This document shows positions 1 through 57,058 of a stretch of DNA of 64,000 nt, piece by piece (position 1 is the stretch's first letter; the number at the start of each line of letters is the position of its first letter). This DNA is from Pontederia crassipes. Its lineage: Eukaryota; Streptophyta; Magnoliopsida; Commelinales; Pontederiaceae. Position numbers and translations under genes: made by a program. The notes beneath the pieces are model-generated. The model saw nothing but the letters and a program-made list of their open reading frames with translations. It was not told the origin of the DNA and searched no databases. The DNA lies in assembly GCA_030549335.1 (NCBI GenBank), contig CM060194.1:18788171-18852170 (forward strand), written 5' to 3'.

Positions 1-23
1 ATGTTATTATATTATTATTTTTA

Positions 24-221
24 ACTCCGCCTATGTTTTATAGCCGGTCCCAAGCCCGGATAAAGGAGGAGGATTGTGTTAAGCCCCGACAGCCAGCGTA
101 AAACGCTGTCGAATCTTATGAACATGGATCAACGAATAGAGCGGAATGTCGTCGTATGATCCATGTAGCCGACCCCACCTAGTGGGATAAGGCTTTGTTG
201 TTGTTGTTATTATTGTTGTTG
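24..221 (+). mobile_element. Short RTE-derived SINE-like element
   Basis: This 0.2-kb element has the 5' end of the RTE LINE seen at 35,533 (ctccgcctatgttttatag...) joined directly to the RTE 3' end (gatccatgtagccgacc... gggataaggctttg) and a TTG-type tail. Almost the whole LINE body, including both enzymatic domains, is missing. It is flanked by an exact 17-bp direct repeat, ttatattattattttta, at 7-23 and 222-238, which I read as the target-site duplication. It codes for nothing. It was probably mobilised in trans by RTE proteins acting on the shared 3' end. Confidence 0.85.
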
Positions 222-238
222 TTATATTATTATTTTTA

Positions 239-428: not shown

Positions 429-2290
429 AACAAACAATGAAAAAAATAAAATAAACCATAACGCAAAATTTCAGCACCGAGGTTAGATGCCATAAAAGAT
501 AACATGAAAAATGGTCAAGACCACTCACTTAACTTCAGACAACATTTGCAGTTGTGACTCCCACATTAGTGGCCAGATAGAGACAAGCTTTAGCATGCAG
601 ATTTAATTGGCTTGCCTTGAACATTAGTAAATCAAGTAGCAAGGTAGCAACATGGAAGAAAGCTAAGTCTTTCTTTTTTACCAGAAATGGTTTTAGGCTG
701 CAAGAAATGGTTATGTCAGTTAACTCCTGACGAAAGAAAGAATGCATGATAGTAACCCAATACATATATTAAACCAATGGATCTTAAACATTAAAATAAG
801 TAAACCACAATGCATGCAATTCTTTTGCATTTGAAAATTGTTTTGCCTGTGTATATTCCACACTTCCAGTGCACTGCAACATAGACAATGAAAGTTAGAC
901 AAGCTCATGAATGAGGCAGAAAGGACATAGGTGATTTTAAGAATTAACAGAAATAAATAGAGCAATTTTTCAGACAAGGTCAACAACCCGTTATGTAGAG
1001 CCAATCCATTGTTCAAGAGAAAGCAGGATAGATAAAACCTAACCAAATTGGGGGCTCTAAGAAACGAATTCAAGAGTACTAGCTCCCATGACTTGGACTT
1101 ACGTGCTATCCACCTGAGCAAACCAATTTGGTTTGGTAATGCTCTTTAAAAGAGAGAAGGTTGTGTTTGATCAAGTTTGCAAGGAAAATGTTGATGACCA
1201 ACTTAATTATGATACTAGGAGTTCCATGAGCTACGCTTCTCTACATTGAATACTCTATTTTTTCACTTAAAAAGAGGAGGCCTACCAGATTTGTAGGCAT
1301 CATATTTTTATTAATGAAATTGATATTTACATTGACAAGGTCAACATTGTATTTAAAACTCTTTTAGTTTCCTTTATGCGTTGGTGATGTATAGACATCA
1401 TTGAAGTCTAATGTTCATACCCAATTTGGTGGAAAATTATGTGCAGATACTTAAAATAGGTAAAGTTCATGTTTTAACTTCATCGTTTGACAACTAGAGT
1501 TTGGATATTTAAAATAGGTACAGTCCATGTGTTAGCATAATTTGAGCATATTTACCTAAAAACTTATTAAGGAAGTAAAGTTATTAAAAATACACATGAC
1601 ATAGGAAGCAAAAAACATCATACACAAAACCACTGTGAGAAAATATCAGGCAACTTTATCACTAAATGTCTCAATCATCTTTAGAGGGTTTATTAGTGGA
1701 ATATCTTTCGGAATCATTTCTTTAACAACAGGAAAAAGAAGAAAAATATACATGTATTATTTACCGAGCATACGAAAATGGGAAGCATATTTCAAAAGAA
1801 TATTTTCCCTGAACAATCATAGGTTAGGCTCATATAAAACATAGGGGACTGTTAAGAACCTTTATGATATTTCATGAAGGAGATCTATCAACAGAATCAA
1901 ATAAATGATTTCATGCCTGCTTTTTTATATGCTCCCTTGCTCAGGAACCAATGACACGTCAAAAAGAACATAAAATTTGAAAAATTATAAGTTTTTCCTG
2001 TGAATTAATTGAGAATTTGATCCCAAAGTCATTGCAGCATATGATGGAAATGGGTGGTATGTAGTTCTTTGGGACATAACATGGAATCTGAACCAGAACT
2101 GATAGCAGATGATTACTCAATTTTCTTAATCATCGATCCTGTTCATTAGAAAAAAGAAACACTCGGATCATTTTTAAGTCCTGCAAGAAATGAAGATCTA
2201 GAAAAGGAACAAAATCACAAAGCTAAACTAACCGTTTTCATCAATGAGCTCCAACAACCGCAACAAAATGGAAAATAACAGTCTTCTCAA
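429..2290 (-). repeat. Inverted partial copy of the 1.9-kb tandem unit plus leader
   Basis: Read on the minus strand this stretch matches 34,690-34,834 and then 38,880-40,495 of the right arm, at roughly nine bases in ten by eye. Near 2,141-2,160 it runs uninterrupted through the point where the right arm carries the 4-kb SR/RTE composite, so it represents the pre-insertion state. The homology stops near 429 in the middle of the unit. Short open stretches inside it are not preserved between copies, so I call no gene. Confidence 0.8.
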
Positions 2291-2300
2291 AAAAAAAAGA

Positions 2301-2946
2301 AAAGAAAAGAACACACAAAATGAATTAGGAAAAGTGCAAAAAGGCATAACGTTAGAACAGGAACAACATGAAGAAAGGTGAGGGCGACATCCAGAACCTT
2401 CAAGCGCCTAAGCGTGACGGGTCGGCCAACGAGTCCTGGCCACCTGCGGCAGGTTTCGAGGGGCTCGAGGGCGTCGTCCAGAACCTTCGAGCGCCAAAGT
2501 GCCGCGGCGGTCGGCCGACGACCAGGAGAAATGGTGGCGAGATTCAAGGGGCCTGACATCGCCCTCACCTGCCGGTCCCCTCGTCGGCCCCTCGAAACCT
2601 GCTGTCGGGCCGTGCCGCGGCCCTCGCGCTTTGATGCTGGAAGGTCTCATCGGCCCCTTGAAACCTGCCTCCGATGGCCTGGACTCAGATGCGGCAGTCG
2701 GCCAACGGCTAGGGGAAATGGTGGCGAGAGACGGCACCTGAGTCCAGGCCACTGAGGAGAGGACAGGCAATAGAAAGGAGGAGGCTGGAGGTGGAGGCGA
2801 AGGCGGAAGCAACGGCCGGCTGCGGCGATGGAGGAGTAGTTGAGCGGTCGGAGAGGGTTTGGGCGGAGGTTTTTGTGGGGGAGGAAGAAGAGAAAACACC
2901 AAGAACACGAATCTTGTTTTTGTAACGTATGAATTTTGATTACTTT
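2301..2946 (-). other. GC-rich island with pyrimidine-rich leader (copy 1 of 3)
   Basis: A sharply GC-rich block in AT-rich surroundings, with copies at 32,187-32,735 and 34,086-34,625. Read on the minus strand it opens with a CT-rich, C-run leader like a plant 5' UTR. It then runs as an open frame of 166 codons (2,908-2,408) rich in Pro, Ser and Arg. The DNA holds internal direct repeats (gccgaccgccg, gcaggtttcgagggg) and an inverted copy of the latter, so it can fold. The product resembles no family I know. It may be a first exon or promoter fragment of a host gene caught in the duplication, and the open frame may simply reflect high GC content. Confidence 0.5.
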
Positions 2947-2961
2947 AAACTAGTGAAACCC

Positions 2962-22190: not shown

Positions 22191-22344
22191 TAATACTAAT
22201 ATTTTAGGTATCTTAATATATGTCTTAAATTCAAGTCAAATTGGGTTTAATCTTTTATTATTGAGTCATACAAATATTGTGTATCTATTAAATAATAATA
22301 ATAATAATATGAATAAATAAATAAGAAAACCTCATCATATACTT

Positions 22345-23840: not shown

Positions 23841-23844
23841 TAAA

Positions 23845-24125
23845 TGTAATGGGTTCACACTCGTAATGGGTCATAACCACCGGTAATGTGTCATAACCAC
23901 CGATAATGGGTTATTACACCACCCTTTATAAAACCTCTTCACAACTAACTTTTAAATGTGTGTGAAACTCCTCGAAATGGGTCATAACTTGGTGTGAAAT
24001 GTGTAATGGGTCATGACTCACACCCTCTAATGGATTGTGACATTAGCTATAATGGGCCATTACATTTGTAATGGGTGTGAAACCCGTAATGGGTCATAAC
24101 AATATCATGGGTTTGAAACTCGGGG
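23845..24125 (+). repeat. Minisatellite of taatgggtcataac words
   Basis: About a dozen imperfect copies of '(g)taatgggtcataac(cac)' and shorter 'aatgggt' forms are strung over 280 bp, for example taatgggttcacactcg, taatgggtcataaccaccgg and taatgtgtcataaccaccga. No coding. Confidence 0.7.
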
Positions 24126-24337: not shown

Positions 24338-24655
24338 CACTACAAGAAAACTACGAATTTGCGACGACATTTGTTTATGGACTAAAATTCTTCATAATTT
24401 TTTACGACGTTAGTGACAGTGAGGAAAATCCTTCCAAAATATTGACGATCAAAATGTCCGTCGCTAGTACCAATGGTAAAATTCGTCGATAATTTATCGA
24501 TAGTGGACGCCTTCGATATGGTGTGATCCGTTAGTAACAATATAATTTAAACATATGACTAATATTTTAATATGACTGAGCCTTCGGGATTACTGACGGA
24601 TTGGAAACGATGGCGCGATCCATCAGTAACTATATTTATAAGAAAAAAAATATAA
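24338..24655 (+). mobile_element. CACTA transposon 5' terminus
   Basis: Starts CACTACAAGAAAAC, the canonical plant CACTA end, preceded by a possible 3-bp duplication 'taa'. Inside are short subterminal repeats in both orientations (cgtcgataat, gatccgtTagtaac, gatccatcagtaac), as expected for transposase binding zones. The other end is not in the window at a sensible place. Part of the subterminal zone (about 24,530-24,655) belongs to the inverted duplication and recurs at 10,440-10,540. Confidence 0.6.
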
Positions 24656-26068: not shown

Positions 26069-28446
26069 TCACGACCCCGATTTAAATGGTGATTTAAATC
26101 AGAGCTCGTGATTAATTCCAGACGATCAAATAAATTTTTTTTAAAAAGATTATGCATAACTCCTCTAGATAATACAAAAAATGATAATACATATAAGCAA
26201 ACCGCGCAGTTTATATTGATCATTCAGAACATGTAACAACTCTAGGATTTACACCACCACATAGTCATAAAAGATTTACATTTTACAAGATACAAAAGTA
26301 CTTTTCATACATAGCACATATCAAACTCTCTTCATATCTCAACAGAGGAATACGATAGCTACAAGTCTTCTATCTAATACGCGCGGTGGGGCACATGACT
26401 TCTCAATACCTTAGCAGCAAAAAGAATCCACACCCTGCTAAGGCTATCTCTCGCGCTCCCAAAAGTTCTACTAATCTGAAAAAGTGTACAACAACACTGT
26501 GAGCAAATAATAGATCAGTAAACTAATAACTCATAAGCTATGTGTTACCATCTAATAAATTCAAGAAGACATAAGCATACATGCATTAATCATAACATCA
26601 AAGTCAATATCTTCATACATTTACTATATATATATATATAACATCCCAATCAAAAGTATTGCACTCAATTTACATTCATTATCACTTAAATATATCAAAC
26701 ATGTGTATGCAATGCAACACTCTTATATATATACACGGATCACCAACTGGCCAATGGTCGGTAGGTGAATTCTAGAGGTGGCTCCCATCGTGATCAGTGA
26801 TGTAGCACTTAGCTCCATTCTACCTCATCTCTTTTGGGGAACTGATCATATAACAATTGGTGGATTTTAGAGGTGAACCCTATGGATTCTAGAGGTGGCC
26901 CCCATCCGACTACTCACGATGTGGCACTTAGCTCCACATGACACTTAGCTCTAGCCTATCTCATCCCATTTCTGAGGAACAAAATGATGCATTGGATTCT
27001 ATAAGTAGCTCCCATCGTGATCAGCGATGTAGCACTTAACTCCAACAATCATATATACAAATGCAAATGGATGTCATTCATCATATAACAAATACCTCAT
27101 GAGTATCAAGAGATGAATCAATCCAATACCATTTCAAAATGAACAGGATTGCACTTATCGCAATCCATTTATATCATATCACATAAACTTTCCATAATTG
27201 CATTTCTCGAAACCAATTCATAGAATTCCAAAACATATTCAATACTTATAATAATCGATGTCACACCAAATTTAAAAAAGGTGAAAACATAGAGTAAGAG
27301 AAATCAACTTACCTATAAGGACTAACAAAATGTTTTACTTTCTCTTTTCACTACTTTACTCTTCTACTCCTATAACAATAATAATAAGAAACACATTACT
27401 ACTATGATATGAATACAAGCCCATCACGTATGAAACATAATTAATTGAAATGGTATATGAACCTTAAATGTTTACTCTTATAACTCAAGTAACTATTAAA
27501 CATAAAGATTGACCTAATATTATAACAAATTGCACACATAATAAAGAAAAATACATATCTTCTGGTATACATAATCAAATGACATCATTCCAATTTTTTT
27601 TACTTTCATATTACAGAGACATTAATTTGTAAAAGTTTCATTTCCTACTTCATTATGATTTGCTCTCATGAAAATCAATATTCATCCTAACTTTATGTTA
27701 TTTCTATGTCCTGACAGATTGAGTAACCTTACTTTTATAATTTATATAAAATAATAAACCTTCCTTGTTCTGATTCTTTTAATTTTCTCAAATAGTAGAC
27801 ATGATGCAACTCATAAAATTACTTAAATTTATATCTATTTATACTGAGCACAATAAATTTAACTAATACTAGCATAATCTGCCATAAGTTCCCTCCTGAC
27901 AAACTGAGTAAGGCTCGGTAAATTATTTATAACTTTTGCTACGCATATCATTTTCTAGTGATTCCAATTGTCAATGAACCCTAACATCAATGTCTATGAC
28001 ACCCTAAATTATCAAATAATTCTACGACATATTGAATTTAATACATAATTTACAAATTCGGGTAGCAATTTACGCGAACAGAGTGATAGTACCTTAAAGA
28101 CACGAGCATAACTTTATCTACAAAAATCGTATTAACTTGATTCCAAATCTCAATGAAAGTAAACTCATAGGGGATCAATCAGAATTAGTTTCATAATTTT
28201 TGGATCACTTGAAAGTATGGAATTATGTAGCTAAAAATTCGTGAAATCAATTGAACATGGCTAGGGTTAATCTTACCCATGAACAACATGAGTTTTGCCC
28301 CATTTTGAAGTAAAATTCGAAAATGAATAGGTGAGATAGGTTCAGAGAAACCCTAATTAGGAACTATGTAGTTAAAATCTAAAGGAAATTAAGTAGGAAC
28401 TTACCAAAATCTAAAACCCTAGTTGCCCCTTTTCTTCCTCCAATTC
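26069..28446 (+). mobile_element. Gypsy LTR (solo or truncated)
   Basis: Starts tgtcacgaccccgattt, a common gypsy LTR opening. It has LTR-like content throughout, including an internal tandem repeat near 26,760-27,050 with recurring 'agaggtggctcccatcgtgatcag' and 'gcacttagctcc' words. There is no second LTR or coding region. The right edge abuts a second copy of the interrupted copia sequence rather than the continuation of the first, so the end at 28,446 is a rearrangement breakpoint rather than a natural terminus. Confidence 0.55.
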
Positions 28447-30714
28447 CTTCATATTATGACAACATAAAGGCCACTTATTCAGGGTAGAAAATGTGAAATG
28501 TGCATGAATGTAGGAGGAGCTTGTTTACTATTCATTCCCTATACTTCCAATTTACTTTTTCTTCTATATCGTTTGATTAGTTTATCATCATAAAAAGGGG
28601 GAGATTATTGAATCCTATGTTTTGATGATAACAAATTAAATTCGACATAAAAGTTACTAATATATACTTAAGTGATGACAATGCATGTGTAAGATTGACA
28701 TGACTATATTTGTAGAATAAGTCACAAAGTTAAAAGATTAAATAGAAAAATTTTGTACGATCGGATGGATATCGAGTAGAAATACACCACGAAGACGACG
28801 ATCGATGGACCGATTGTGGCATGGGTCGACCGACCAACAGAAGAACAAATTCCACACATGGCGCGAAAATGTTTGATGGTTTGGTCATGGCACTAGTCTA
28901 TCGATCAACTGAAAAAATGAATTCAACAAATGTCACGGCCATGACGGTCAAAGAACCGATCGAAGGACCGGTCCACCGATCAACTCAAAGAATGAATTCA
29001 ACAAATGTTGTGACCATATCGGTCGAAGGATCGATCGACAACCCATACAACATAGAAAATGCGCAACGATCATATTGACTGGTCTATAAATGTGGTCGAC
29101 CAATCTTAGACTGAAGCAGTAACAACTAATTTTTAAGACAAAATTTATGAAAGACTTTTTGGAAGTAATCAACACATGAAGAAACTTATAAAAGGAGTAC
29201 CCAAGTCTGAAAAATAATTATCCAAGCAAGAGAAAACACTCCGGAGCTCTACCTAAGTTCAAAACACTTATTGAATCAAAAGTTTGCGAATCATCCCTTT
29301 CTCTTCCATATTTTAAAAGTGAGCATTAATTGTAAAAGAAGTGAGTCAGAGAGAATTCTTTAGTGAGATTTATTGAAGTTGAGAGCTTCTTGTAAGAAGA
29401 GACGTGCTTTCCCTTTTGAGCGGAGAAGAAGACGTGTGGTGTAATTATTTTCTCCCTACAAAAAAAGAAAAAGCTAGTGAATCTCCAGTGGTCTCGAGGA
29501 CGAGAAGTCGGAGCGGACGTAGACCAACGAGTTGGGCCAAACCTCGTCAACATCGTGTTCTCTTCATTTGCTCCTTATCTCTTATTTGCTCTTAATCATT
29601 ATTTGCTTATGATCGATTTTATCAACTTTCTGAAATTGATTTCACAATAGGATTTTTATACATCAATTCACTTCCTCTGGGTGCTTTTGGTCCTACAATT
29701 AGCATAAGTTTCCATGTGACGTTGTAAGATAAATCTTTGAATATGTACTTTTTTATGTAGACATTATGAAGAGCATAACTTGAGTTCTATGAGATTGCAA
29801 TTTCTTAAAACACACTACATCATATTTGTAATGCTTGCATGTTATGTATATTATTTAACCTAATATTTTATTTGTGTAAGTTTTTGCTATATTCCGTTAT
29901 GTGTTTCATAGATATTTTGCATCTTATATTAATTGATTCTTAAACTAATATGCAAGAAATTTATCCTTGTCCTCTTCGATATTTTAGAATATACAGTGAT
30001 CATTGACATAAGTTTTTTTTAACTTGAATATCTAGAATTATTTTCTCAAAAAAAAAAAAAAAGATCTAGAATAAACAAATAATTTGAGGATGACTAAGTA
30101 GTGTTCATACTTCGAAGCTTTATCTTGACCTTAGTGGTCTTCAAGTTCCTTTAGGCTAAAAAGTGAGACAATGAAAAATATTTAATTTTGTGATAACTTA
30201 TTACAAATGCTAGAGCTCAGACTGTTTTGACATATGCTAGGCCTTACGATAGGGTCAAGTAAATTTGATTATCTTAGTAAATTTGTAGTCTCCGCAGAAA
30301 GATCTTTCCTTTCCTTCATGACATTACTAATAGATAGAGTTTACCTTATATCTAATAAATATAAATGTATACATAATATTTTATGAGTGGGAAAGACCTT
30401 ATTACATAATATTTTATATATACACAATTAGAACTACGAGAACTTGAACTCCAGTTTTCGTTGTCAAACATAATTATTCTTATTGCCCTTTGAGACTTCG
30501 AATAGATTTTTGTAGTTATTTTCATTATTTTTTATTATGACAGGAGAGAGAAGTTCCATAACCAATCATAAAATTATGGATAACCTATTATATCCATAAT
30601 TAGTAAATGACAGTATGTAAAAATTATTATATTATTATTATTTTTAACCATTATTGTAACTAGATATTCAATGTGTGATACGATATTTTTTAATTAAATT
30701 ATATATTAGAAAGG
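28447..30714 (+). mobile_element. Copia (SIRE-like): 3' internal end, LTR and leader
   Basis: Internal tail with polypurine tract at 28,447-28,605, LTR at 28,606-29,697 and leader at 29,698-30,714. The LTR has a TATA box near 29,186 and ends ...gtcctaca. This is the inverted counterpart of 9,500-7,095. Internal-type sequence lies on both sides of a single LTR, as after recombination between neighbouring copies. A fossil with no intact coding region. Confidence 0.6.
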
Positions 30715-32746
30715 AGACGAGAAGAAGACGTGTGGTGTAAAAAGAGTTGTTCTCTTCCTATAAGTAAAGAAAAAGCTAGTGAAGCTCGGAGGATGAGAAG
30801 TCGGAGCGGACGTAGGCCAAAGAGTTGGGTCAAATCTCATCAACATATTGTGTTCTCTTTGTTTGCTCCTTATCTCTTATTTGCTCTTTATCATTATTTG
30901 CTTGTGATCGATTTTATCAACTTTCTAAAATTGATTTCATGATAGAATTTTTATACACCAATTCATTTTCTCTTAGTGCTTTCGATCCTACAATTAGCAT
31001 AAGTTTCCATGTCACGGTGTAAGATAAATATTTGAATATGTACTTTTTTATGTAGGCATTATGAAGAGGATAACTTGAGTTCTATGATTAGGATTGCATT
31101 TTCCTAAAACACACTACATCATATTTGTAATGCTGGCATGTTATGTATATTATTTAATCTAATAGCTTATTTGTGTAAGTTTCTGCCATATTGCGTTATG
31201 TGTTTCATAGATATTTTGCATCTTATATGATAATTGGTTCTTAAACTAATATGCAAGAAATTTATCCTTGTCTTCTCCGATATTTTAGAATATATAGTGA
31301 TCATTGACATAAGTTTTTTTAACTCGTTTATCTAGAATCATTTTCTCAAAAAATAAAAGATTTAGAATAAATGAATAATTTGAGGATGACTAAGTAGTGT
31401 TCCTACTTGGAAGCTTTATCTTGCCCTTAGTGGTCTTCAAGTTCCTTTAGGCTAAAAAGTGAGACAATGAAAAATATTCATTTTTGAGATAACTTATCTC
31501 TGGTACAAATGCTAGAGCTCACTGCTTTTGACATATGCTAGGCACGATATGGTCAAGTAAATTTGATTTGGTAAATTTATAGTCTTCGTAGAAAGATCCT
31601 TCTTTTCCTCCGTGACATTACTAACAGATAGAGTTTACCATATATTTAATAAATATAAATGTATACATAATATTTTATGAGTAGAAAAGACCTTATTATA
31701 TAATAATTTATGTATACAAAATTAGAACTACGAGAACTTGAACTCCAATTTTTGTTGTCAAACATATTCTTATTGCCCTTTGAAGGATTGAATAGATTTT
31801 TGTAGTTATTAACCTATAAAAAAAACTTCATTATTTTTTATTATGACGGAGAGATAAGTTCTATAACCAATCATAAAATTATGAATAACCTATTATATCC
31901 ATAATTAGTTAATGACAGTATGTATAAATTTTTATATTTTTATTATTTTTAACCATTATTGTAACTAGATTTTCAATGTGTGATACTATATTTTGCAATT
32001 AAATTATATATTAGAAAGGATAGAAAAATATTAAATAAATAAAATAAGATATGATTTTATGTAGTATTTCTGTGATTCGAACTTATACAGAATAATCCAC
32101 GTATTTAAAAAATGAATAATTTTCAAAATTAAAAAAATAATCTCAATAAATTTAAAGTAATCAAAATTCATACATATAGTTACAAAACCAAGATTCGTGT
32201 TCTTGGTGTTTTCTCTTCTTCCTCCCCCACAAAAACCTCCGCCCAAACCCTCTCCGACCGCCCAACTACTCCTCCATCGCCGCAGCCGGCCGTCGCTTCC
32301 GCCTTCGCCTCCACCTCCAGCCTCCTCCTTTCTATTGCCTGTCCTCTCCTCAGTAGCCTGGACTCTGGTTCCGTCTCTCGTCACCATTTCCCCTAGCCGT
32401 TGGCCGACCGCCGCATCCGAGTCCAGGCCTTCGGAGGCAGGTTTCAAGGGGTCGACGAGACCTTCCAGCGTCAATGCGCGACGGCCGCGGCGCGGCCCGA
32501 CGGCAGGTTTCGAGGGGCCGACGAGGGGACCGGCAGGTGAGGGCGACGTCAGGCCCCTTGAATCTCGCCACCATTTCTCCTAGCCGTCGGCCGACCGCCG
32601 TGGCACTTTGGCGCTCGAAGGTTCTGGACGACGCCCTCGAACCCCTCGAAACCTGCCGCAGGTGGCCAGGACTTGTTGGCCGACCCGTCGCGCTTAGGCG
32701 CTTGAAGGTTCTGGATGTCGCCCTCACATTTCTTCATGTTGTTCCT
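30715..32746 (+). repeat. Duplicated block R2: LTR tail, leader, GC-rich island
   Basis: Begins again inside the copia LTR (compare 29,423) and runs through the LTR end and leader to the GC-rich island at 32,187-32,735. From about 30,868 it is nearly identical to block R3 (32,747-34,632), differing at only about one base in a hundred by eye. The R2/R3 joint sits at '...gttgttcct|tatctcttatttgctcc', where the two ancestral sequences share tcct. A recent direct tandem duplication. Confidence 0.8.
32187..32735 (+). other. GC-rich island (copy 2 of 3)
   Basis: Same content as the islands at 2,301-2,946 and 34,086-34,625. The open frame starting at 32,197 stops after 128 codons here because of a TAG at 32,581, while the other two copies stay open for 166 codons. 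Immediately downstream the sequence jumps into copia LTR sequence at the duplication joint. Confidence 0.6.
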
Positions 32747-34632
32747 TATCTCTTATTTGCTCCTTATCTCTTATTTGTTCTTTATCATTATTTGCTTGTG
32801 ATCGATTTTATCAACTTTCTAAAATTGATTTCATGATAGAATTTTTATACATCAATTCATTTTCTCTTAGTGCTTTTGATCCTACAATTAGCATAAGTTT
32901 CCATGTCACGGTGTAAGATAAATATTTGAACATGTACTTTTTTATGTAGGCATTATGAAGAGGATAACTTGAGTTCTATGATTAGGATTGCATTTTCCTA
33001 AAACACACTACATCATATTTGTAATGCTGACATGTTATGTATATTATTTAATCTAATAGCTTATTTGTGTAAGTTTCTGCCATATTGCGTTATGTGTTTC
33101 ATAGATATTTTGCATCTTATATGATAATTGGTTCTTAAACTAATATGCAAGAAATTTATCCTTGTCTTCTCCGATATTTTAGAATATATAGTGATCGTTG
33201 ACATAAGTTTTTTTAACTCGTTTATCTAGAATCATTTTCTCAAAAAATAAAAGATTTAGAATAAATGAATAATTTGAGGATGACTAAGTAGTGTTCCTAC
33301 TTGGAAGCTTTATCTTGCCCTTAGTGGTCTTCAAGTTCCTTTAGGCTAAAAAGTGAGACAATGAAAAATATTCATTTTTGAGATAACTTATCTCTGGTAC
33401 AAATGCTAGAGCTCACTGCTTTTGACATATGCTAGGCACGATATGGTCAAGTAAATTTGATTTGGTAAATTTATAGTCTTCGTAGAAAGATCCTTCTTTT
33501 CCTCCGTGACATTACTAACAGATAGAGTTTACCATATATTTAATAAATATAAATGTATACATAATATTTTATGAGTAGAAAAGACCTTAATATAATAATT
33601 TATGTATACAAAATTAGAACTACGAGAACTTGAACTCCAATTTTTGTTGTCAAACATATTCTTATTGCCCTTTGAAGGATTGAATAGATTTTTGTAGTTA
33701 TTAACCTATAAAAAAACTTCATTATTTTTTATTATGACGGAGAGATAAGTTCTATAACTAATCATAAAATTATGAATAACCTATTATATCCATAATTAGT
33801 TAATGACAGTATGTATAAATTTTTATATTTTTATTATTTTTAACCATTATTGTAACTAGATTTTCAATGTGTGATACTATATTTTGCAATTAAATTATAT
33901 ATTAGAAAGGATAGAAAAATATTAAATAAATAAAATAAGATATGATTTTATGTAGTATTTCTGTGATTCGAACTTATACAGAATAATCCACGTATTTAAA
34001 AAATGAATAATTTTCAAAATTAAAAAAATAATCTCAATAAATTTAAAGTAATCAAAATTCATACATATAGTTACAAAACCAAGATTCGTGTTCTTGGTGT
34101 TTTCTCTTCTTCCTCCCCCACAAAAACCGTCGCCCAAACCCTCTCCGACCGCCCAACTACTCCTCCATCGCCGCAGCCGGCCGTCGCTTCCGCCTTCGCC
34201 TCCACCTCCAGCCTCCTCCTTTCTATTGCCTGTCCTCTCCTCAGTAGCCTGGACTCTGGTTCCGTCTCTCGCCACCATTTCCCCTAGCCGTTGGCCGACC
34301 GCCGCATCCGAGTCCAGGCCTTCGGAGGCAGGTTTCAAGGGGTCGACGAGACCTTCCAGCGTCAATGCGCGACGGCCGCGGCGCGGCCCGACGGCAGGTT
34401 TCGAGGGGCCGACGAGGGGACCGGCAGGTGAGGGCGACGTCAGGCCCCTTGAATCTCGCCAACATTTCTCCTGGCCGTCGGCCGACCGCCGCGGCACTTT
34501 GGCGCTCGAAGGTTCTGGACGACGCCCTCGAACCCCTCGAAACCTGCCGCAGGTGGCCAGGACTTGTTGGCCGACCCGTCGCGCTTAGGCGCTTGAAGGT
34601 TCTGGATGTCGCCCTCACATTTCTTCATGTTG
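32747..34632 (+). repeat. Duplicated block R3: LTR tail, leader, GC-rich island
   Basis: Second unit of the tandem duplication. Unlike R2 it continues at its right edge into the sequence found at the same place in the left arm ('gttgttcctgttctaacg'), so R3 keeps the ancestral right flank. It includes an uninterrupted Helitron target site at 34,041/34,042. Confidence 0.8.
34086..34625 (+). other. GC-rich island (copy 3 of 3)
   Basis: A CT-rich leader followed by a 166-codon open frame (34,088-34,588), Pro/Ser/Arg-rich. It is colinear and mostly identical with the minus-strand frame of the left arm. Same uncertainty: possible first exon, possible chance frame in high GC. Confidence 0.5.
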
Positions 34633-34834
34633 TTCCTGTTCTAACGTTATGCCTTTTTTCCCTATTCCTGTTCTTTTCTTTTCTTTTTTTTTTTTGAAGA
34701 CTGTTCTTTTCCATTTTGTTGCGGTTGTTGGAGCTCATTGATGAAAACAGTTAGTTTAGCTTTGTGATTTTGTTCCTTTTCTAGATCTTCAGTTCTTGCA
34801 GGACTTAAAAATGATCCAAGTGTTTCTTTTTTCT
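34633..34834 (+). other. Intron-like sequence shared by both arms
   Basis: T-rich, intron-like sequence that also occurs in the left arm (2,340-2,150, minus). It ends with agtgtttcttttttct, the target of the composite insertion. No coding. Confidence 0.6.
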
Positions 34835-34951
34835 CGGAATATCGCGTCCTGGTGACTGGGCTACCTTCTTCTGCTTCATGGCAAGACTTGAAGGATCATA
34901 TGCGCCGAGCAGGTGATGTCTGCTTCTCTGAAGTGTTCCGTGAGGGTGGTG
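34835..34951 (+). pseudogene. SR splicing-factor exon fragment (SF2/ASF-type, RRM2)
   Basis: From codon gaa at 34,837 it reads [20 protein letters not shown] and then [18 protein letters not shown], about 39 residues. SWQDLKD is the signature heptapeptide of the pseudo-RRM (second RRM) of SF2/ASF-type SR proteins, the plant SR30/SR34 group, which bind pre-mRNA and guide splice-site choice in the nucleus. The exon ends in phase 1 at a good donor, g|gtaagc (34,952). Its 5' side is cut at the insertion border without an acceptor. No other SR exon, including RRM1 and the RS tail, is nearby, so this is a stray fragment, although its frame is undamaged. Confidence 0.85.
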
Positions 34952-35532
34952 GTAAGCTTCTATACCTTTACCCTTGTATTTATTTCATTTGTTGCTGGGG
35001 ATTAATTTTAGTTGTGATTTTTGTGTGCATTTCTTGTACACAACAACAAAAAAAAATCCCGTTGTGATTTGTGTGCATTTCTTGTACACTTGTGTCATTG
35101 GCTTATCCATTAGAAATGTAGGGAATTGCCCATGCATAAATAAACTCTACATTAAGATTGAGCTTCCCCCATGGGTTTGAAACACAATCAAAGATCAATT
35201 GGTATCATTTTTCTGTGGAAATAAACTAGCTAATGTGATTTGGATAATGAAACTAATAAGTGGGAAGGGGTTATTTCCATAAAGAAGGCATGCAAATAGA
35301 GTTCAGGCATATATTATTTATTGTTTGAATAAGATTTTGCACCAAAGTTTTTGGGCCGAGTAAAAGTGAATGAGATATGATCACTAATGATGAAAAAAAC
35401 CTGAGGGTTGATAGTGAATCTTTATAGTTGCACAATCCTTTCTTCACTTTGATCTCTATATAATTGTATTACTCATTAAAAAATGTCTTTGTAATTGTCC
35501 TTTGGTTTCTACATGGCTTCATTGATTTTTTG
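34952..35532 (+). other. SR gene intron sequence
   Basis: Starts at the donor gtaagc and is T-rich and intron-like up to the RTE 5' end at 35,533. It contains a local duplication: 'gtgtgcatttcttgtacac' at about 35,023 and 35,072. Plant SR30/SR34-type genes are known for long introns with alternative splicing in this part, which would fit an intron large enough to host LINEs. Confidence 0.55.
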
Positions 35533-35741
35533 CTCCGCCTATATTTTATAGCCGGTCCCAAGCCCGGATAAAGGAGGAGGGTTGTGTTAGGCCCCGACAG
35601 CCAGCATAAAATCCTGTCGAATCTTATGAACATGGATCAACGAATATATTGTGTTAATGCTAGGTCGTTACCCGTAAGTAACGCGCTGTACAGTTCGGGT
35701 ATAGTGATAAGAGAGCAAGAGCCGCTGCTCGCCTGAATGCA

Positions 35742-36740
35742 GTGTTAAATGAGCAAGGGCTACCGCACTCTAATGGACGGAGGCGGTTAAAGAAGCTAGT
35801 TAATGAGACTAAGGTCAGATTAGGTTCTCGGAACATTGGGACATTGAATGGGAAGCGCCTCGAGGTGGCACAAGTAATGGACCAGTGTAAGATTAGTATC
35901 TTATGCTTGCAAGAAACTAGATGGGTAGGAGAGGGAAGTAAAGATATTAGGTTAAATGGTTCCAAACTTTGGTACACAGGTAAGGTAAATGGAAGGAATG
36001 GTGTTGGTATTATCGCGGATGCAGAATGGAGGAAGAATGTCGTGGAAGTTAAAAGGATTGAGGATCGAATCATATCCGTGAAAGTAATTGTTGGAAAGGA
36101 GACTATGAACATTATTAGTGCATATGCACCCCAAGTAGGAGCAGAATCACATCTCAAGGAGAAGTTTTGGGCAGATATGGAGGGTTTGATTGAAAGTATA
36201 CCAACAACCGAGAAAGTTTATATTGGGGGAGACCTTAATGGACATGTTGGTAAAGAGGCAGGACCACATGCAAGGGTTCATGGTGGTTTTGATTTTGGGG
36301 AGTTGAATGAGGAAGGACAAACTATTATTGATTTTTCTTTAGCATACGACCTTAAGATTATCAACACTTGTTTTAGGAAGAGAGAGGAACATTTAATCAC
36401 ATACAAAAGTGGAACTCATATGTCTCAAATCGATTTTTTCTTGACAAGAAATACTGATAAAAGACGCTGTACTAATTGCAAAGTAATTCCTGGGCATGGG
36501 GTGACTACACAACATAGATTGTTAGTTCTTGATATGCAAATGAAATGTATAAAACCAAAATTCCGAACAGTTTTTGATCGAAAGATCAAGTGGTGGCAGT
36601 TAAAGGGGCAGAAGCGAGAGACTTTTAGAAGTAAGTTATTAGAGGAAAGTGTGTGGGAGTTAGAAGGAGATGCTAGTATCATGTGGAAGAATGTGGCAAA
36701 AAAGGTTGAAATGATTGCTAAAGCCATTTTAGGAGAATAA
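35742..36740 (+). pseudogene. RTE LINE endonuclease domain (ORF 5' part)
   Basis: A 332-codon open stretch holding the APE-type endonuclease that nicks target DNA for LINE integration. In order: RNIGTLNGK (N-terminal strand), LQETRW (metal-binding Glu), NIISAYAPQVG, GGDLNGHVG (catalytic Asp/Asn), MSQIDFFLTR and PGHGVTTQHRLLVLD (catalytic His near the end). All key residues are present. The frame is cut by an in-frame TAA at 36,738, after which the same frame continues with LINE sequence. The true start lies upstream, perhaps near 35,640, since family members begin earlier. Confidence 0.88.
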
Positions 36741-38051
36741 AAAGGTTTTGGACCACGAGATAAGGAGACTTGGTGGTGGAATGAGGAGGTCCAAGAAAAG
36801 GTGTGTAATAAGAAGAATTGTTTCAAGGCGATACACTTGGACAATAGTTCTGAAAATTGGGAAAAGTATCGTTTGGCGAAAAGGGAGGCTAAGAAGGCAG
36901 TTAGTGATGCTCGTGCTAAAGCATATGAGGGGTTTTATAAGGAGTTAGGGACAAAGGCTGGTGAACAAAGGATTTACAAGATTGCAAGGAATAAAGAGAA
37001 GGAGTCGAGAGATTTGGATCAAGTAAGATGCATAAAAAATGAAGTTGGCAAGGTTTTAGTTACTGAAAGAGATATTAAGAACAGATGGGAAGAGTATTTC
37101 TATAAGCTATTTAATGATGGATGTGAAGGTTCCCGTTGTGATTTGGAGGACTTGACAGTTAGCGAATGTGAGCTTAATAGGTCATTTTATCGTAGAATTA
37201 GAGTCTCGGAGGTTAGCGAAGGTCTTAAGAAAATGGAGAATGGTAAAGCTGTTGGACCGGATGGTATACTGATTGAAGTTTGGAAATGTTTAGGAGAAAA
37301 AGGTGTGTTGTGATTATGTAAACTATTTAATGAGATTTTACGATCGAAAAAGATGCCTGATGATTGTGCAAATTATAGAGGGATTAAACTTATGAGTCAC
37401 ACAATGAAATTATGGGAAAAAGTGATTGAGCATAGATTGAGAATGGAGACTAGTATTTCTGAGAGACAATTTGGGTTCATGTCAGGAAGATCCACTATAG
37501 AGGCAATTTATGTACTAAGGAGTATGATGGAGAAGTATCGAAGTAGGAGAAGAGACTTACATATGGCTTTCATTGACTTAGAGAAAGCGTATGATCGGGT
37601 ACCAAGAGATGTACTTTGGAAAGCCTTGCAAAAGAAGAGGGTGAGTGTTGCCTACATTAAGGTAATACAAGATATGTACGATGGGGCATTGACTAGGTTT
37701 AGGACACCCGGAGGTGAGACAAATGAATTTCCTATAGGAATTGGCCTACATCAAGGATCAGCTTTAAGCCCGTATCTATTTAACTTAGTTATCGATGCTA
37801 TAACCGAGAGTATCACAGAGGAGGTACCTAATTGCATGCTATTTGCGGATGATATAGTACCTTTAGCGGATTCAAGAGAAGAGATTAATACAAAATTGGA
37901 AATATGGAGAAATACGTTGGAGTCAAAGGGTTTTCGTTTAAGTATTAATAAAACAGAATATATGCATAGCAATTTCACAAATAAACAACTTAGAGACGAT
38001 TTAAAAGTTAGGGGAGGATATAATTCCTCAAGTGACAGTTTAAATATTTAG
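36741..38051 (+). pseudogene. RTE LINE reverse transcriptase domain (ORF middle)
   Basis: Same frame as the endonuclease. Linker (WWWNEEVQEKV..., YKIARNKEKESRDLDQV), then RT: GKAVGPDGILIEVWK, ANYRGIKLMSHTMKLWE, RQFGFMSGRSTIEAI, MAFIDLEKAYDRVPRDVLW (first catalytic Asp), LHQGSALSPYLFNLV and the FADD box MLFADDIVPL, then GFRLSINKTEYM. Lesions are an in-frame TGA at 37,311, an in-frame loss of about 17 codons between MPDD and CANYRG (near 37,362), where RTEs normally have the 'STLIPIYKNKGD' block, and a frameshift near 38,020. The catalytic residues survive, but the protein could not be made. Confidence 0.88.
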
Positions 38052-38620
38052 GATCAATTGTAAGACAAGATGGTGAGATTGATGAGGATGTTAATCATAG
38101 AATTCAAGCTGGTTGGTGTAAGTGGAGGAAAGCCATTGGAGTTCTTTGTGATAGAAAAGTACCCAATAAAGTTAAAGGAAAATTCTGTCGTACTGCTATA
38201 AGACCAGCAGTGTTATATGGTAGTGAATGTTGGACTATGAAGGGACAACATGAACGTAAAGTGGGGGTAGCCGAAATGAAGATGTTGAGATGGATGTGTG
38301 GTCATACAAGATTAGATATGATTAGGAATGATCATATACGTGAACGAGTCGGAGTGGCTCCTATTAGTGAGAAAATGGTAGAGAATCGTTTGAGATGGTT
38401 TGGTCATGTTCAGAGAAGACCATTAGATGTGCCAGTAAGAAGAGTAGATCAAATAATCTGGAGTCCGATTAAAAGAGGGAGAGGGAGGCCAAGGCGGACA
38501 CTTGGCGAACTAATAGAGCAAGATCTATTGGTGAATAATATACCGAAAGGTTTGGTTACTAATAGAGCGGAATGACGTCGTATGATCCATGTAGCCGACC
38601 CTACCTAGTGGGATAAGGCT
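38052..38620 (+). pseudogene. RTE LINE C-terminal region
   Basis: Shifted relative to the RT frame. It reads the RTE tail: YLGSIVRQDGEID, then IRPAVLYGSECWTMKGQHER, KMLRWMCGHTRLD, RLRWFGHVQRRP and KRGRGRPRRTLGELIEQDL. The usual terminal W-RRMIHVADPT has its Trp codon turned into TGA (38,572-38,574). The element's 3' end follows at once. Confidence 0.85.
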
Positions 38621-38684
38621 TTGTTGTTGTTGTTGTTGTTTGGTAAATTGAGATTTTAGTCTGTATAATATCGATTCATGGAAA

Positions 38685-38865
38685 CTCCGCCTATGTTTTA
38701 TAGCCGGTCCCAAGCCCGGATAAAGGAGGATGGTTGTGTTAGGCCCCGACAGCCAGCGTAAAACTTTGTCGAATCTCATGAACATGGATCAACGAATGCG
38801 GAATGGCGTCGTATGATCCATGTAGCCGACCCCACCTAGTGGGATAAGGCTTTGTTGTTGTTTGT
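38685..38865 (+). mobile_element. Short RTE-derived SINE-like element
   Basis: RTE 5' end (ctccgcctatgttttatagc...) fused to the RTE 3' end, with joint '...gatcaacgaat|gcggaatgg'. It lacks the whole body and ends gtttgttgttg-type next to the composite's right target repeat. It sits 42 bp downstream of the full RTE and on the same strand. Its 3' end is most simply the 3' end of the RNA that was inserted. Confidence 0.85.
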
Positions 38866-38879
38866 TGTTTCTTTTTTCT

Positions 38880-41800
38880 AATGAACAGGATCGATGATTA
38901 AGAAAATTGAGTAAGGTTCAGATTCCATGTTATGTCCCAAAGAACTACATACAACCTATTTCCATCATATGCTGCAATGACCTTTGGGATCAAATTCTCA
39001 ATTAATTCATAGGAAAAACTTATAATTTTTCAAATTTGATGTTCTTTTTGACATGTCATTGGTTCCTGAGCAAGGGAGCATATCAAAAAGCAGGCACGAA
39101 ATCATTTATTTGATTTTGTTGATAGATCTCCTTCATGAAGTATCGTAAAGGTTCTTAACAGTCCCCTATGTTTTATATGAGCCTAACCTATGATTGTTCA
39201 GGGAAAATATTCTTTTGAAATATGCTTCCCATTTTCGTATGCTTGGTAAATGATACATGTATATTTTTCTTCTTTTTCCTGTTGTTAAAGAAATGATTCT
39301 GAAAGATATTTCATGTGGCTTTTAAATAACTTTACTTAATAAGTTTTTACGTAAATATGCTCAAATTATGCTAACACATGGACTGTACCTATTTTAAATA
39401 TCCAAACCTGCCTGCTAGTTGTCAAAACATGAAGTTAAAACATGGACTGTACCTATTTTAAGTCTCTGCACATCATTTTCCCCCAAATTGGGTACGAACA
39501 TTAGACTTCAATGATGTCTATACCTCACCAACACATAAAGGAAACTAAAAGAGTTTTAAATACAATGTTGACCTTGTCAATGTAAATATGAATTTCATTA
39601 ATAAAAATATGATGCCTACAAATCTGGTAGGTCTCCTCTTTTTAAGTTAAAAACAGAGTTTTCAATGTTGAGAAGGAACTCCTAGTATCGTAATTAAGTT
39701 GGTCATCAACATTTTCCTTGCAAACTTGATCAAACACAACCTTCTCTCTTTTAAAGAGCATTACCAAACCAAAGTGGTTGGCTCGGGTGGATAGCAGGTC
39801 CAAGTCCAAGTCACGGGAGCTAGTATTCTTGGATTCGTTTCTTAGAGTCCCCAATTTGGTTAGGTTTTATCTATCCTGCTTTCTCTTGAACAATGGATTG
39901 GCTCTACATAACGGGTTGTTAACCTTGTCTGAAAAAAGCAGCATTGGAAGCTTGCTCTATTTATTTCTGTAAATTCTTAAAATCACCTATGTCAGGAAGT
40001 TCCTTCTGCCTCATTCATGAGCTTGTCTAACTTTCGTTGTCTATGTTGCAGTGCACTGCTGGAATATACACAGGCAAAACAATTTTCAAATGCAAAAGAA
40101 TTGCATGCATTGTGGTTTACTTATTTTAATGTTTAAGATCCATTGGTTTAATATATGTATCGGGTTACAATCATGCATTCTTTCTTTCGTCAGGAGTTAA
40201 CTGACATAACCATTTCTTGCAGCCTAAAACCATTTCTGGTAAAAAAGAAAGAGTTAGCTTTCTTCCATGTCGCTACATTGCTACCTGATTTACTAATGTT
40301 CAAGGCAAGCCAATTTAAATCTGCATGCTAAAGCTTGTCTCTATCTGGCCTCTAATGTGGGAGTCACAACTGCAAATGTTGTCTGTAGTTAAGTGAGTGG
40401 TCTTGACCAATTTTCATGTTATCTTTTATGACATCTAACCTCGGTGCTGAAATTTTGCGTTATGGTTTATTTTATTTTTTTCATTGTTTGTTTACTACAT
40501 GTGAATTTGCTAACTCACTATTTCTTAGTCATTCATCAGCATCTTTTCTAATTCATTAGTTTGACAAGTTTATTATGATTTCGTGCAGCTAAGCTGTTTT
40601 CAATATATCTATAGGTTATAATGCTTCCACATTTCCCGGATAAAGTTCAATGAACCAGATGACACAAAAATGGGAGAGAATCATGCTATTACCCATCTTC
40701 ATCTCCACGAATGTTTCATGTGCTCCGTTGTTCATCTTACTCTAAGGAGGTAACTTTTTTTTTTTGAGAAGAGAAAGGATGACCACCATTAGGTTGTCAT
40801 CCAGGTATATATATATGACCAAAAAGTAGTAGCATGTACATGTGGAGTGCCCTCAAGTAGAGAGCTGCATAAAAGGAGGAGAAGACAAGGATCAATCAGA
40901 GCCCCAATCCCGAAGAAGACAAAAGATGCGATGTACAATACTATCCACCTGACCTCTCTCCCCACAAAAAATAACACGGTTACGCTGAAGCCATATAGCC
41001 CTGGTACCAGACAAAAAGGTCACCAAAAGAGCTCTCCAGTCCAGCCTCTGCGTGTGAAGACGTCTCATAGTCTGCCAAAAGTCCACAGTCGACAAGGGAA
41101 TACCATCGGTGGCGCCCAAACGAATCCACACCTCACGAGCCACCTGGCAACAAAAGAATAGGTGTGTGACATCCTCCTCCATCTCCCCACAGAAAACACA
41201 GGAGGTGTTTGCGTGGGGTGCCCACCGCGCACGGAGAACCCGAGTGAGGATAAGTCTTGACTTTCAGCGGTACACGGGAGCGCCAGATAAGTCTGCAGTC
41301 AGCACTGAAGTCCTCCGAAACTGAGGTAGCCGGAAGAAACCGAAGATAGAGGCTACGCACCGAAAAGGAATCTGATACCCACACCCAGCCATCCGTCCGT
41401 GCCGTATCTGGCCGAAGTGGGGCAATCCTCTGATGAAGTGTCAGCAGCTCGGAGAACCGCTGCTCAGAAAGTGGGGAGCCGAAGAGAGGTGTCCAGCAGC
41501 CGGTACCCGGGCCACCCCTCTCCGACCAGCGTCCGGCTGTGCCACCAAGGCCCGCAACCGAGGAAAAGAGTCGGCAAGAGGGCACCCCGGCGCCCACTCA
41601 TGCTTCCAAAAAGAGAACGCCTCCCCGGAACCGAGGGATGGAACCATGAATGGGCGCACCTGGGAGAATAACTTTAACTCTACATAGTGATATTTTGCTG
41701 GCATTTTCTGAATCTCGGATGCATGATTCTCATTTACAATGTGCGGTAGAAGTATTTGTGCTCGTCAAGGGCAATACCATATCATCCGGTGGAAAACTGA

Positions 41801-43897: not shown

Positions 43898-44027
43898 TTA
43901 GCCCATGTGTTTTATATGAGCCTAACCTATGATTGTCCTGCGAAAATATTCTTTTGAATTATGCTCCCCATTTTCGTATGCTTAAATGATACATGCATAT
44001 TTTCTTATTTTTCCTATTGTTAAAGAA

Positions 44028-44189
44028 CGAAGTCGTATGATCATGGATCTCATACGACTTATTTTGTTGTTGATACATGCATCTAAATTATTCTTATTTT
44101 TCCTGTCGAATCTCATGAACATGGATCAACGAAGTCGTATGATCCATGTAGCCGACTCCACCTAGTGGGATAAGGCTTTGTTGTTGTTG
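44028..44189 (+). mobile_element. RTE-derived insertion with an embedded target-site fragment
   Basis: Flanked by ttgttaaagaa at 44,017-44,027 and 44,190-44,200. It ends in RTE 3' sequence (gatccatgtagccgactcc... ggctttg(ttg)n) preceded by RTE 5'-region sequence (cctgtcgaatctcatgaac). Before that it holds a short palindrome (gtcgtatgatcatggatctcatacgac, in two halves) and a 30-bp near copy of the adjacent host sequence (gatacatgcat...cttatttttcc). It looks like two priming or template-switch events at one site. Confidence 0.7.
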
Positions 44190-44650
44190 TTGTTAAAGAA
44201 ATGGTTCCGAAAGATATTCCACTAATAAATGGTCTAAAGATGATTGAGAGATTTAGTGATAAAGTTGCTCAATATTATCTCACAGTGGTTTTGTGTATGA
44301 TGTTTTTGCTTCCTACATCAAGTGGCTTTTAAATAACTTTACCTCCTTAATATGTTATGGAAATATGCTCAACTTATACTAGATATCCAAACCTGCCTAC
44401 TAGTTGTTGAAACATGGTGTTAACACATGGAATGTATCTATTTTAAGTCTCTGCACATGATTTTGCACCAAATTGGGGGTATGAACATCCGACTTCAATG
44501 ATGTCTATGCCCCATCAATGCATAAAGGAAACTAAAAGAGTTTTAAATACAATGTTGATTTTGTCAATGTAAATATCAATTTCATTAATGAAAAATGTGA
44601 TGCCTACAAGTGTGGTAGGTCTCCTCTTCTTAGTAAAAAAATAGAGTTTT

Positions 44651-46148
44651 TTTTTTAGGGGGGAAAGGATGAGCACCAAGTTAGGTTGTCATCCGTGTAT
44701 ATATATCACTGTGGAAGGGAAATGTACAAAATGTAGGCTCCCAAGAGGAGAGCAGCAAAAAAAGAGGAAAACATACATCACTATCCAAAGCTCCACTCCC
44801 GAAGAAGAAAAGAGCTATGGAGTACAATGCTATCCACCTGAGTCCTGTCCCCACAAAAAATAATCCGGTTGTGCTGGAGCCAAATGGCCCAAGCACCGGC
44901 CAAAAAGGTCGCTAACGATGTCCTCTAATAATGTCGTCTGTTGCTACGAACTCTGAGTGTCTGCCAAAATGTGTCCGGTAACATGGGAAAGCCATTTGTC
45001 ACCCCCAGTCGCGCCCAAACCTCCCGAGATACACTGCAGACAAAAAATAAGTGTGCGAGGTCCTCCTCTGCCTCGCAACATAGGACGCAGTACGTGTCAG
45101 CAAGAGGTGTCCACCTCGCCCTGTACTGCCGAGTGAGAATCCTATGGTGCCGCATAAGCCAAGCTTAGTCCCGCTTCTTCAGTATGCAGATGACACATTA
45201 TTCTTTATTGAGGGCACTGCTCAGGAGGCCAGGCGGGTAGCCATCATGTTGGATCTTTTCGGGGCAGTCTGTGGCTTGCAGGTCAACCATGCCAAGTCGT
45301 CGTTCATCCCTTTTGTATGGTTCAGGAGGAGGCAGATGCGTGTGCGACTGAGCTTCGCACCCCGATTGGCACCTTGCCGATTACTTATCTGGGGCTACCA
45401 TTGTCTGACCATCATATCGGTTCTAGTGGATGGACGACGGTTCCTTCCCCTTCTTCAAACTCCGATGAGAGGATGGAGCACAAGTTGCATGGTTGGAGTT
45501 CGAGACTGCTTTCTCGTGGTGGCCGACTCGTTCTGCTTCGCTCTGTTTTGTCTGCACTGCCGATTTATTTAATGTCCGTACTACGGTTGCCAGATCAAGT
45601 TTGGCGACGACTTGAGTCAGTGCAGAGCAGAGTAGATATTTTTGGCAGGGGAGTGCCACAGCCTAGCGAGCCATTCATCTTGTTTCATGGCAGACCATTT
45701 GTCGCCCCACCTCCTAGGGCGGACTCGGCATTCGTGATCTTTGTTATACCAACTGGGCTTGGGCGGATTATGGGTTCTCACAATAGCCTTTGGAGGTCAA
45801 TGTTCTTCGTTTGCTATGGACAGGACCTATTTTGGGACTCTAGAGCCATTCTTCCCCGTGGGGCCTTCGCGTTCTGGCGAGGTGTTGCCTCCCTCCTTCC
45901 CATGATTCGGCCATTCATGGTCCCCTCTCTTGGCAGGGGGGAGATTTTCTCATTCTGGCATCACGATTAGTTCTCGGGAGGGTCACTGGCAGTCTCTTTC
46001 TCGCACTTATTGGTTGGCACATCCTGATTCTACAGTTGCAGAGGCGTGGTCTGAGCCCGGTGGTCCGGGCACTGGGTCGTGGAACCCCACTTTTAGGTCG
46101 GCCCTTTCTAACAGGCGCATTACAGAGCTTTTGGCGCTTTGTCAGCGG
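44651..46148. mobile_element. L1-b: L1 LINE with 5' inversion (twin-primed)
   Basis: Flanked by the exact 13-bp repeat aaaatagagtttt (44,638-44,650 and 46,149-46,161). The 3' part (44,651-45,165) is on the minus strand, with a T run, 3' UTR stem-loop and zf-RVT tail (CVLCCEAEEDLAHLFFVCSV, 45,155 downward). The 5' part (45,166-46,148) is on the plus strand and codes for the reverse transcriptase C-terminal half. Compared with L1-d the two parts are adjacent segments of ORF2 with about 190 bp missing at the joint, and the outer segment is flipped. This is the twin-priming pattern known from mammalian L1. Confidence 0.85.
45166..46148 (+). pseudogene. L1-b reverse transcriptase fragment (inverted segment)
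   Basis: Opens VPLLQYADDTLFFIEGTAQE, with the YADD catalytic box at its very start, then FGAVCGLQVNHAKSSFIPF. After a shift of frame it continues ITYLGLPLSDHHIGSSGW, LLRSVLSALPIYLMSVLRLP, RPFMVPSLGRGEIFSFW and GTGSWNPTFRSALSNRRITE. These are the usual landmarks between RT and zinc-binding tail in plant L1 ORF2. At least two frame changes make it dead. Everything upstream of YADD was lost on insertion. Confidence 0.82.

Positions 46149-57022: not shown

Positions 57023-57058
<36 letters not shown>

What the first reader, a model, noticed from the sequence alone, without database searches (positions are those of the whole stretch)
34821..38879. Host SR-factor exon and intron moved by an RTE LINE as one RNA
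Seen: a 5'-cut exon coding for the SWQDLKD region of an SF2/ASF-type SR protein, its donor and intron, a full RTE LINE and a short RTE derivative lie on one strand as one 4.0-kb block. The block ends in TTG repeats and is bounded by a 14-bp direct repeat. The inverted left arm shows the same locus without the block. Known: RTE inserts by target-primed reverse transcription, giving target repeats, a 3' tail and frequent 5' truncation. Inferred: an unspliced SR pre-mRNA carrying intronic RTE copies ended at the short element and was copied as template. LINE-driven 5' transduction of a host exon plus intron is rarely seen this clearly in plants, and it is a route to exon shuffling.
Basis: partly seen in the sequence, partly recalled or inferred. 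Interest (0 to 1): 0.85.

Follow-up and report, generated by a model that had tools for sequence, protein, structure and literature searches.

The report
Plant LINE insertion carrying host exon
A jumping element of what looks like a plant genome appears to have copied a piece of a splicing-factor gene, exon and intron together, into a new place, a kind of gene-fragment capture that a 2026 review says had not been reported in plants.

Summary
A 4.03-kb block (34835-38865) lies between perfect 14-bp direct repeats (34821-34834, 38866-38879). The inverted left arm has the same flanks joined at one 14-mer, without the block. On one strand the block holds a 5'-cut SR34-type RRM2 exon, a GT donor and 581 bp of presumed intron, a near-full RTE LINE, 42 bp, and a short RTE derivative whose TTG tail meets the repeat. 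That is a target-primed insertion with the short element's tail as 3' end (about 0.9). New here: the three 5'-complete RTE copies begin with sub-threshold but strong twister-P1 ribozyme matches. Such ribozymes are reported at RTE 5' ends, probably freeing RTE RNA from upstream transcripts. The full copy has lost the A at the cleavage site and should not cut; the short copy keeps it, which counts against plain read-through unless cleavage failed. The source gene could not be searched.

The parts
34821..34834 (+). left copy of the 14-bp target-site duplication TGTTTCTTTTTTCT
   Evidence: exact match to 38866-38879; single copy at 2148 (-) in the left arm
34835..34951 (+). 5'-cut exon of an SR34/SRSF1-type SR protein, first part of RRM2, open frame
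   Evidence: PDB 6x89_S5 E 6.8e-20, SRSF1 entries E 2.6e-15 to 5.5e-15; RRM_1 20.5 bits, just below the 20.7 cutoff
34952..35532 (+). presumed SR intron with donor GTAAGC; no identified acceptor
   Evidence: translation leaves the SR family at the donor; one other match in the window, 21 bases at 90.5%, E 0.03
35533..38640 (+). near-full-length RTE LINE, 5' end short by at least 2 nt, endonuclease and reverse transcriptase, TTG tail, two in-frame stops and a frame break
   Evidence: Pfam PF03372, PF00078; ORFs
35526..35585 (+). twister-P1 ribozyme match at the full RTE 5' end; cleavage-site UAA reads UUG
   Evidence: 52.8 bits, E 3.8e-10, below gathering score 67.2
38641..38682 (+). 42-bp spacer of unknown origin between the two RTE units
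   Evidence: two other matches in the window, 29 bases at 79.3%, E 0.03
38683..38865 (+). short non-autonomous RTE derivative: RTE 5' end joined to RTE 3' end, TTG tail; 3' end of the moved block
   Evidence: 93.8% and 96.9% identity to the two ends of the full RTE; 94.5% to the copy at 23-205
38678..38737 (+). twister-P1 ribozyme match at the short element 5' end; cleavage-site UAA reads AAA
   Evidence: 59 bits, E 6.4e-12, below gathering score 67.2
38866..38879 (+). right copy of the 14-bp target-site duplication; its first TGTT may also be tail
1697..2949 (-). left-arm empty site: same flanks joined at the single 14-mer 2148-2161
   Evidence: blastn rows 2148-2949/34834-34042 (93.4%) and 1697-2161/39313-38866 (92.9%); alignment
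23..222 (+). independent short RTE copy, a control for how this family inserts: 16-bp duplication (8-23, 223-238), twister cleavage site UAAC intact

Best explanation
The block is one target-primed insertion (about 0.9). RTE-type machinery took the TTG-ended 3' end of the short RTE derivative, nicked the target at TGTTTCTTTTTTCT, and copied the RNA through the short element, a full RTE and host intron until it stopped inside an SR34-type exon. The most likely template (about 0.5) is an unspliced read-through transcript of an SR gene that carried both RTE units in sense in one intron, i.e. a 5' transduction. Shown here: duplication, empty site, tail, order and strand, exon identity. Inferred: the RNA intermediate, the in-trans enzyme, the source locus. 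RTE elements are reported to begin with a twister ribozyme that probably cuts upstream host RNA away. The full copy here has lost the conserved A at the cleavage site, so it should be unable to cut. The short copy keeps it, so in this reading cleavage there must have failed on the copied molecule.
For: Perfect 14-bp duplication and exact empty site (0 of 1487 random pairs). Block ends at the short element's TTG tail, next to the repeat. Exon, donor, intron, RTE and short element share one strand. The same short family at 23-222 has a 16-bp duplication and a 5' end within one base of the ribozyme cleavage position. Twister matches at 3 of 3 5'-complete copies. PMC7761336, passages read: truncated but competent twister at RTE 5' ends, most likely for 5' processing from upstream transcripts.
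Against: The full RTE has no recognisable target duplication of its own, though its decay suggests it is young. The short element's ribozyme keeps the conserved A and may have been active, which should have cut the transcript. The source SR gene was not available. No spliced junction or poly(A) proves an RNA intermediate. Twister matches lie below Rfam's gathering score, and plain folding shows no special stability (four folds, z 0.87, 0.86, -1.33, -0.84).
Confidence: 0.5

Rival explanations
1. Template jumping: one target-primed event began on an RTE(-spacer-short) RNA; on reaching the RTE RNA's 5' end the reverse transcriptase jumped to the 3' end of a nuclear SR pre-mRNA fragment and stopped in its exon. 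The SR gene never held an RTE.
For: No recognisable target duplication around the full RTE (196 of 1487 random pairs as good) although it looks young. The RTE part ends within about two bases of the RNA 5' end that the twister would set, where jumping would happen. Chimeras by jumping are known for other LINEs (recalled).
Against: Needs an RTE-spacer-short tandem elsewhere, or a second jump, and an SR pre-mRNA fragment ending in an intron. LINE insertions without visible duplications also exist (recalled).
Confidence: 0.27
2. Two steps: SR exon-intron plus short element inserted first, and the full RTE landed inside the block later.
For: Order and strand allow it; RTE decay (about 1.4%) is within the time since the arms split (3.2-4.3% between them).
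Against: A later, young RTE should show its own duplication; none recognised.
Confidence: 0.08
3. The block is older than the arm duplication and the left arm lost it by a precise deletion between the 14-bp repeats.
For: Recombination between the repeats would leave the same single 14-mer.
Against: It would change the timing only; repeats plus TTG tail still need an insertion.
Confidence: 0.05
4. DNA-level patch: a piece of an SR locus with RTE copies was inserted during break repair, and the 14-bp repeat is incidental.
For: The region is full of duplications and an inversion.
Against: A 14/14 repeat at both ends, with the short element's tail at one of them, is not expected (0 of 1487).
Confidence: 0.05

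Closest known systems
SVA 5' transduction in human (named in PMC13317346, passages read)
   Same: host sequence upstream of the element, transcribed from outside it, copied and inserted together with it
   Different: here TTG-ended RTE-type tail, unspliced exon plus intron, a full LINE inside the transduced part
RTE-derived SINEs with the RTE 5' end (Bov-A2, RTESINE1, MAR4, RTE1-N1_LA; table in PMC3747384, passages read)
   Same: short element with the RTE 5' end and RTE 3' end
   Different: family with TTG tail in what looks like a plant; the plant RTE partner pair in that table, tobacco TS, has a tRNA-type head instead
Gene transduction by plant LTR retrotransposons (Bs1 maize, TRIM in Arabidopsis, Rider tomato; PMC13317346, passages read)
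   Same: host gene fragment carried by a retroelement
   Different: LTR elements; the review says 5' transduction had not been reported in plants
Twister ribozyme at RTE 5' ends (PMC7761336, passages read)
   Same: same place in the element
   Different: here the cleavage site of the full copy is lost and upstream host sequence was carried along

Membership tests
LINE-type target-primed insertion | target-site duplication and matching empty site | tested here: met
   14/14 and exact empty left arm
LINE-type target-primed insertion | element 3' tail adjoins the duplication | tested here: met
   TTG tail to 38865, duplication from 38866, TGTT shared
LINE-type target-primed insertion | RNA template | not testable with these tools
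   no spliced junction or poly(A) in the block; no RNA data
5' transduction | non-element sequence upstream of a complete element 5' end, inside the duplication | tested here: met
   exon and intron 34835-35532 upstream of the RTE 5' end shared by three copies; the full RTE itself is short by at least 2 nt
5' transduction | the same sequence lies upstream of the element at its source locus | not testable with these tools
   no genome held
RTE clade LINE | one ORF with endonuclease and reverse transcriptase | tested here: met
   PF03372 and PF00078 on pieces of one frame, broken by stops
RTE clade LINE | TTG-type 3' repeats, as in the 7 flowering-plant RTE families tabulated in PMC3747384 | tested here: met
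RTE clade LINE | place in a reverse-transcriptase tree | not tested
   no relatives in viral contigs; no other collection was searched with the protein
twister-P1 ribozyme | match to RF03160 | tested here: inconclusive
   E 1.6e-13, 6.4e-12, 3.8e-10 over the full model, but 52.8-61.7 bits against a gathering score of 67.2; 0 matches at gathering in the window
[quoted passage not shown]
   present in 2 of 3 copies (UAAC at 22-25, AAAC at 38682-38685), lost in the full copy (UUGC)
SR34/SRSF1-type SR protein exon | RRM2 start with SWQDLKD | tested here: met
Pack-MULE, Helitron or other DNA-transposon capture | terminal inverted repeats or Helitron ends at the block borders | tested here: not met
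   read from the sequence: borders are an exon fragment and a TTG tail with a 14-bp repeat; no inverted repeat of 100 bp or more in 20000-50000, shorter ones not searched by tool

The most novel reading that the evidence does not exclude
This is a first documented 5' transduction in a plant: an RTE-derived short element carried an unspliced host exon, donor and intron plus a full RTE to a new gene-like site. It happened because the 5' twister ribozymes that normally cut RTE RNA free of host transcripts were dead (full copy) or failed (short copy). The ribozyme would then be what keeps 5' transduction rare in RTE elements.
Probability: 0.4. Interest if true: 0.75.

Novelty: new variant of a known kind. 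Interest (0 to 1): 0.6.

Why it matters
[quoted passage not shown] A locus with an exact empty site, perfect target repeat and a captured exon with its donor would be a clean case of LINE-driven exon movement. The ribozyme reading gives a testable reason why it is rare: RTE copies that have lost the cleavage-site adenine should be the ones with host sequence attached upstream. The host site also supplies an AG soon after the block (38887-38888, after the T-rich repeat), so the captured exon could in principle splice onward; that is inference.

Tried and rejected
RTE reverse-transcriptase piece in viral contigs: no relatives. Twister core pattern: 0 in viral contigs and 0 in genome contigs. These are collections of viral contigs and prokaryote genomes, so the misses say nothing about plants.

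Considered that the SR gene itself lies here: three SR queries found nothing else convincing in the window (best other E 0.071). Considered a coding gene in the arms: Pfam at E 0.01 on the six frames of 24533-34120 with X at stops gave 0 families; 34121-34834 and the flank right of the block were not scanned. Looked for a decayed duplication around the full RTE: best ATTGATTTTTT/ATTGAGATTTT, 196 of 1487 random pairs as good; an earlier local test gave p about 0.11, and 6-base matches and one 10-base near-match in the flanks are listed. Thought first of an HDV-type ribozyme at the RTE 5' end; Rfam gave twister-P1 instead. E-value-mode Rfam scans covered 34800-38900 and 1-600 only.
Full report
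What is there. The block runs from 34835 to 38865 on the plus strand and is flanked by TGTTTCTTTTTTCT at 34821-34834 and 38866-38879. This 14-mer occurs in the window at those two places and once on the minus strand at 2148. The window holds an inverted duplication: pieces of 423-10534 (left arm) match pieces of 24533-40498 (right arm) at 89.5-93.4% identity. In the left arm the sequence runs through the single 14-mer without the block into the same right flank. Next to the site the arms differ by 33 of 771 and 14 of 433 aligned bases, 4.3% and 3.2%, gaps left out. That the genome is a plant's rests on the kinds of elements and the SR34-type exon, not on a named record.

The pieces of the block. 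(1) 34835-34951 codes, with T34834, for [39 protein letters not shown], the start of RRM2 of an SR34/SRSF1-type protein: PDB 6x89_S5 E 6.8e-20, SRSF1 entries E 2.6e-15 to 5.5e-15. Its RRM_1 score is 20.5 bits, just below Pfam's cutoff of 20.7. (2) At 34951/34952 lies G|GTAAGC; past it the translation no longer follows the family, so 34952-35532 is presumed intron. (3) 35533-38640 is an RTE-type LINE with endonuclease (PF03372) and reverse transcriptase (PF00078) matches, two in-frame stops and a frame break, and a TTG tail. (4) 42 bp of unknown origin. (5) 38683-38865 is a short element made of 113 bp of the RTE 5' end and 65 bp of its 3' end (93.8% and 96.9%), again with a TTG tail, which runs into the 14-bp repeat. 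The stretch TGTT can be counted to tail or repeat, so the true duplication is 10-14 bp.

How sure the insertion is. Random position pairs drawn from 10600-24000, with the same slack of placement, reached the block's repeat score of 14 in 0 of 1487 cases, and the score of 16 of an independent short copy at 23-222 in 0 of 1487. That second copy shows how the family inserts: complete 5' end, TTG tail, long duplication. At 44101-44194 lies a 5'-truncated copy; compared with sibling repeats it seems, by eye, to have a duplication too. So the block's outer borders are those of an ordinary RTE-family insertion, with the short element as its 3' end and the 5' end cut inside the SR exon.

What is not settled. 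If the SR gene's intron carried the full RTE before the move, that RTE should have its own duplication. The best match between its flanks scores 7, reached by 196 of 1487 random pairs. Two stops among 2898 coding bases correspond to about 1.4% divergence, interval 0.2-5%, so a duplication would probably not have decayed. Either the RTE inserted there without a duplication, or its junction with SR sequence was made during reverse transcription by template jumping. I give the read-through reading 0.5 and jumping 0.27. The source gene decides, and no genome is held for this window.

The ribozyme. Rfam's twister-P1 model matches the 5' end of the three 5'-complete RTE copies that blastn found in the window, over its full length: 18-77 (61.7 bits, E 1.6e-13), 38678-38737 (59.0 bits, E 6.4e-12) and 35526-35585 (52.8 bits, E 3.8e-10). 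These three are below the gathering score of 67.2, and a gathering-level scan of the whole window lists 0 families. Plain RNA folding gives no support, as expected if pseudoknots matter, which such folding cannot show. A review states that truncated but competent twisters are conserved at RTE 5' ends, citing work in preparation, most likely to free the RNA from upstream transcripts (PMC7761336, passages read). The adenine 3' of the cleaved bond is highly conserved and important for catalysis, while the uridine before it is less conserved (PMC5408937, passages read). In the copies here the site reads U|AAC (23-222), A|AAC (short element of the block) and U|UGC (full RTE). In the first copy the duplication ends at the cleavage position to within one base. 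The full RTE's ribozyme should therefore be dead, which would let host RNA stay joined to it. The short element's may not be, which counts against the read-through reading unless cleavage failed on that molecule. This link between ribozyme loss and transduction is my inference.

What is known. [quoted passage not shown] Short elements with RTE 5' and 3' ends are known in mammals (Bov-A2, RTESINE1, MAR4, RTE1-N1_LA), and the plant RTE families of that survey end in TTG or TTGATG repeats (PMC3747384, passages read). I therefore call this a new variant of a known kind. My paper searches cover open-licence papers only.

Verdict. Observation confirmed, mechanism partly supported, interest 0.6: a clean single locus, with the decisive source-gene test still open.

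Noticed in passing
window 2950-7096 (-): Left-arm-only insertion with Helitron-like 3' end: CTAG after a short hairpin (GCACGAAGTGC), at an A^T site without duplication, empty in the right arm (34041/34042) and in a third copy (32150/32151); its other end reads GCTATATA, not TC. Only a weak Usp match below cutoff.
   Followed up: partly
window 55155-63915: Ty3-type LTR retrotransposon on the minus strand: direct repeats 55155-57041 and 62014-63915 (89.5%), RVT_1 at 59117-59932, gag at 60853-61371.
   Followed up: partly
window 44000-44195: A 5'-truncated short RTE copy (44101-44194) and, just before it, a TTG-ended stretch that may be another RTE fragment; sibling repeats at 39200, 41950, 49520 and 51440 lack both (read by eye).
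   Followed up: partly
window 30854-34637: Tandem pair of 1.89-kb units at 99.0% identity (30854-32746 and 32749-34637) with GC-rich coding-like stretches; the part up to 34120 matches no Pfam family at E 0.01.
   Followed up: partly
window 51962-52570 (-): zf-RVT domain (E 1.5e-19) of a probable L1-type LINE remnant; partly overlapping similar sequence at 40757-41251 and 44645-45164, 69-74%.
   Followed up: no
window 38866-38888: The target is a T-rich tract followed by AATGAACAG, which looks like an intron acceptor; with the captured donor at 34952 it could form a new intron. Read from sequence only.
   Followed up: no
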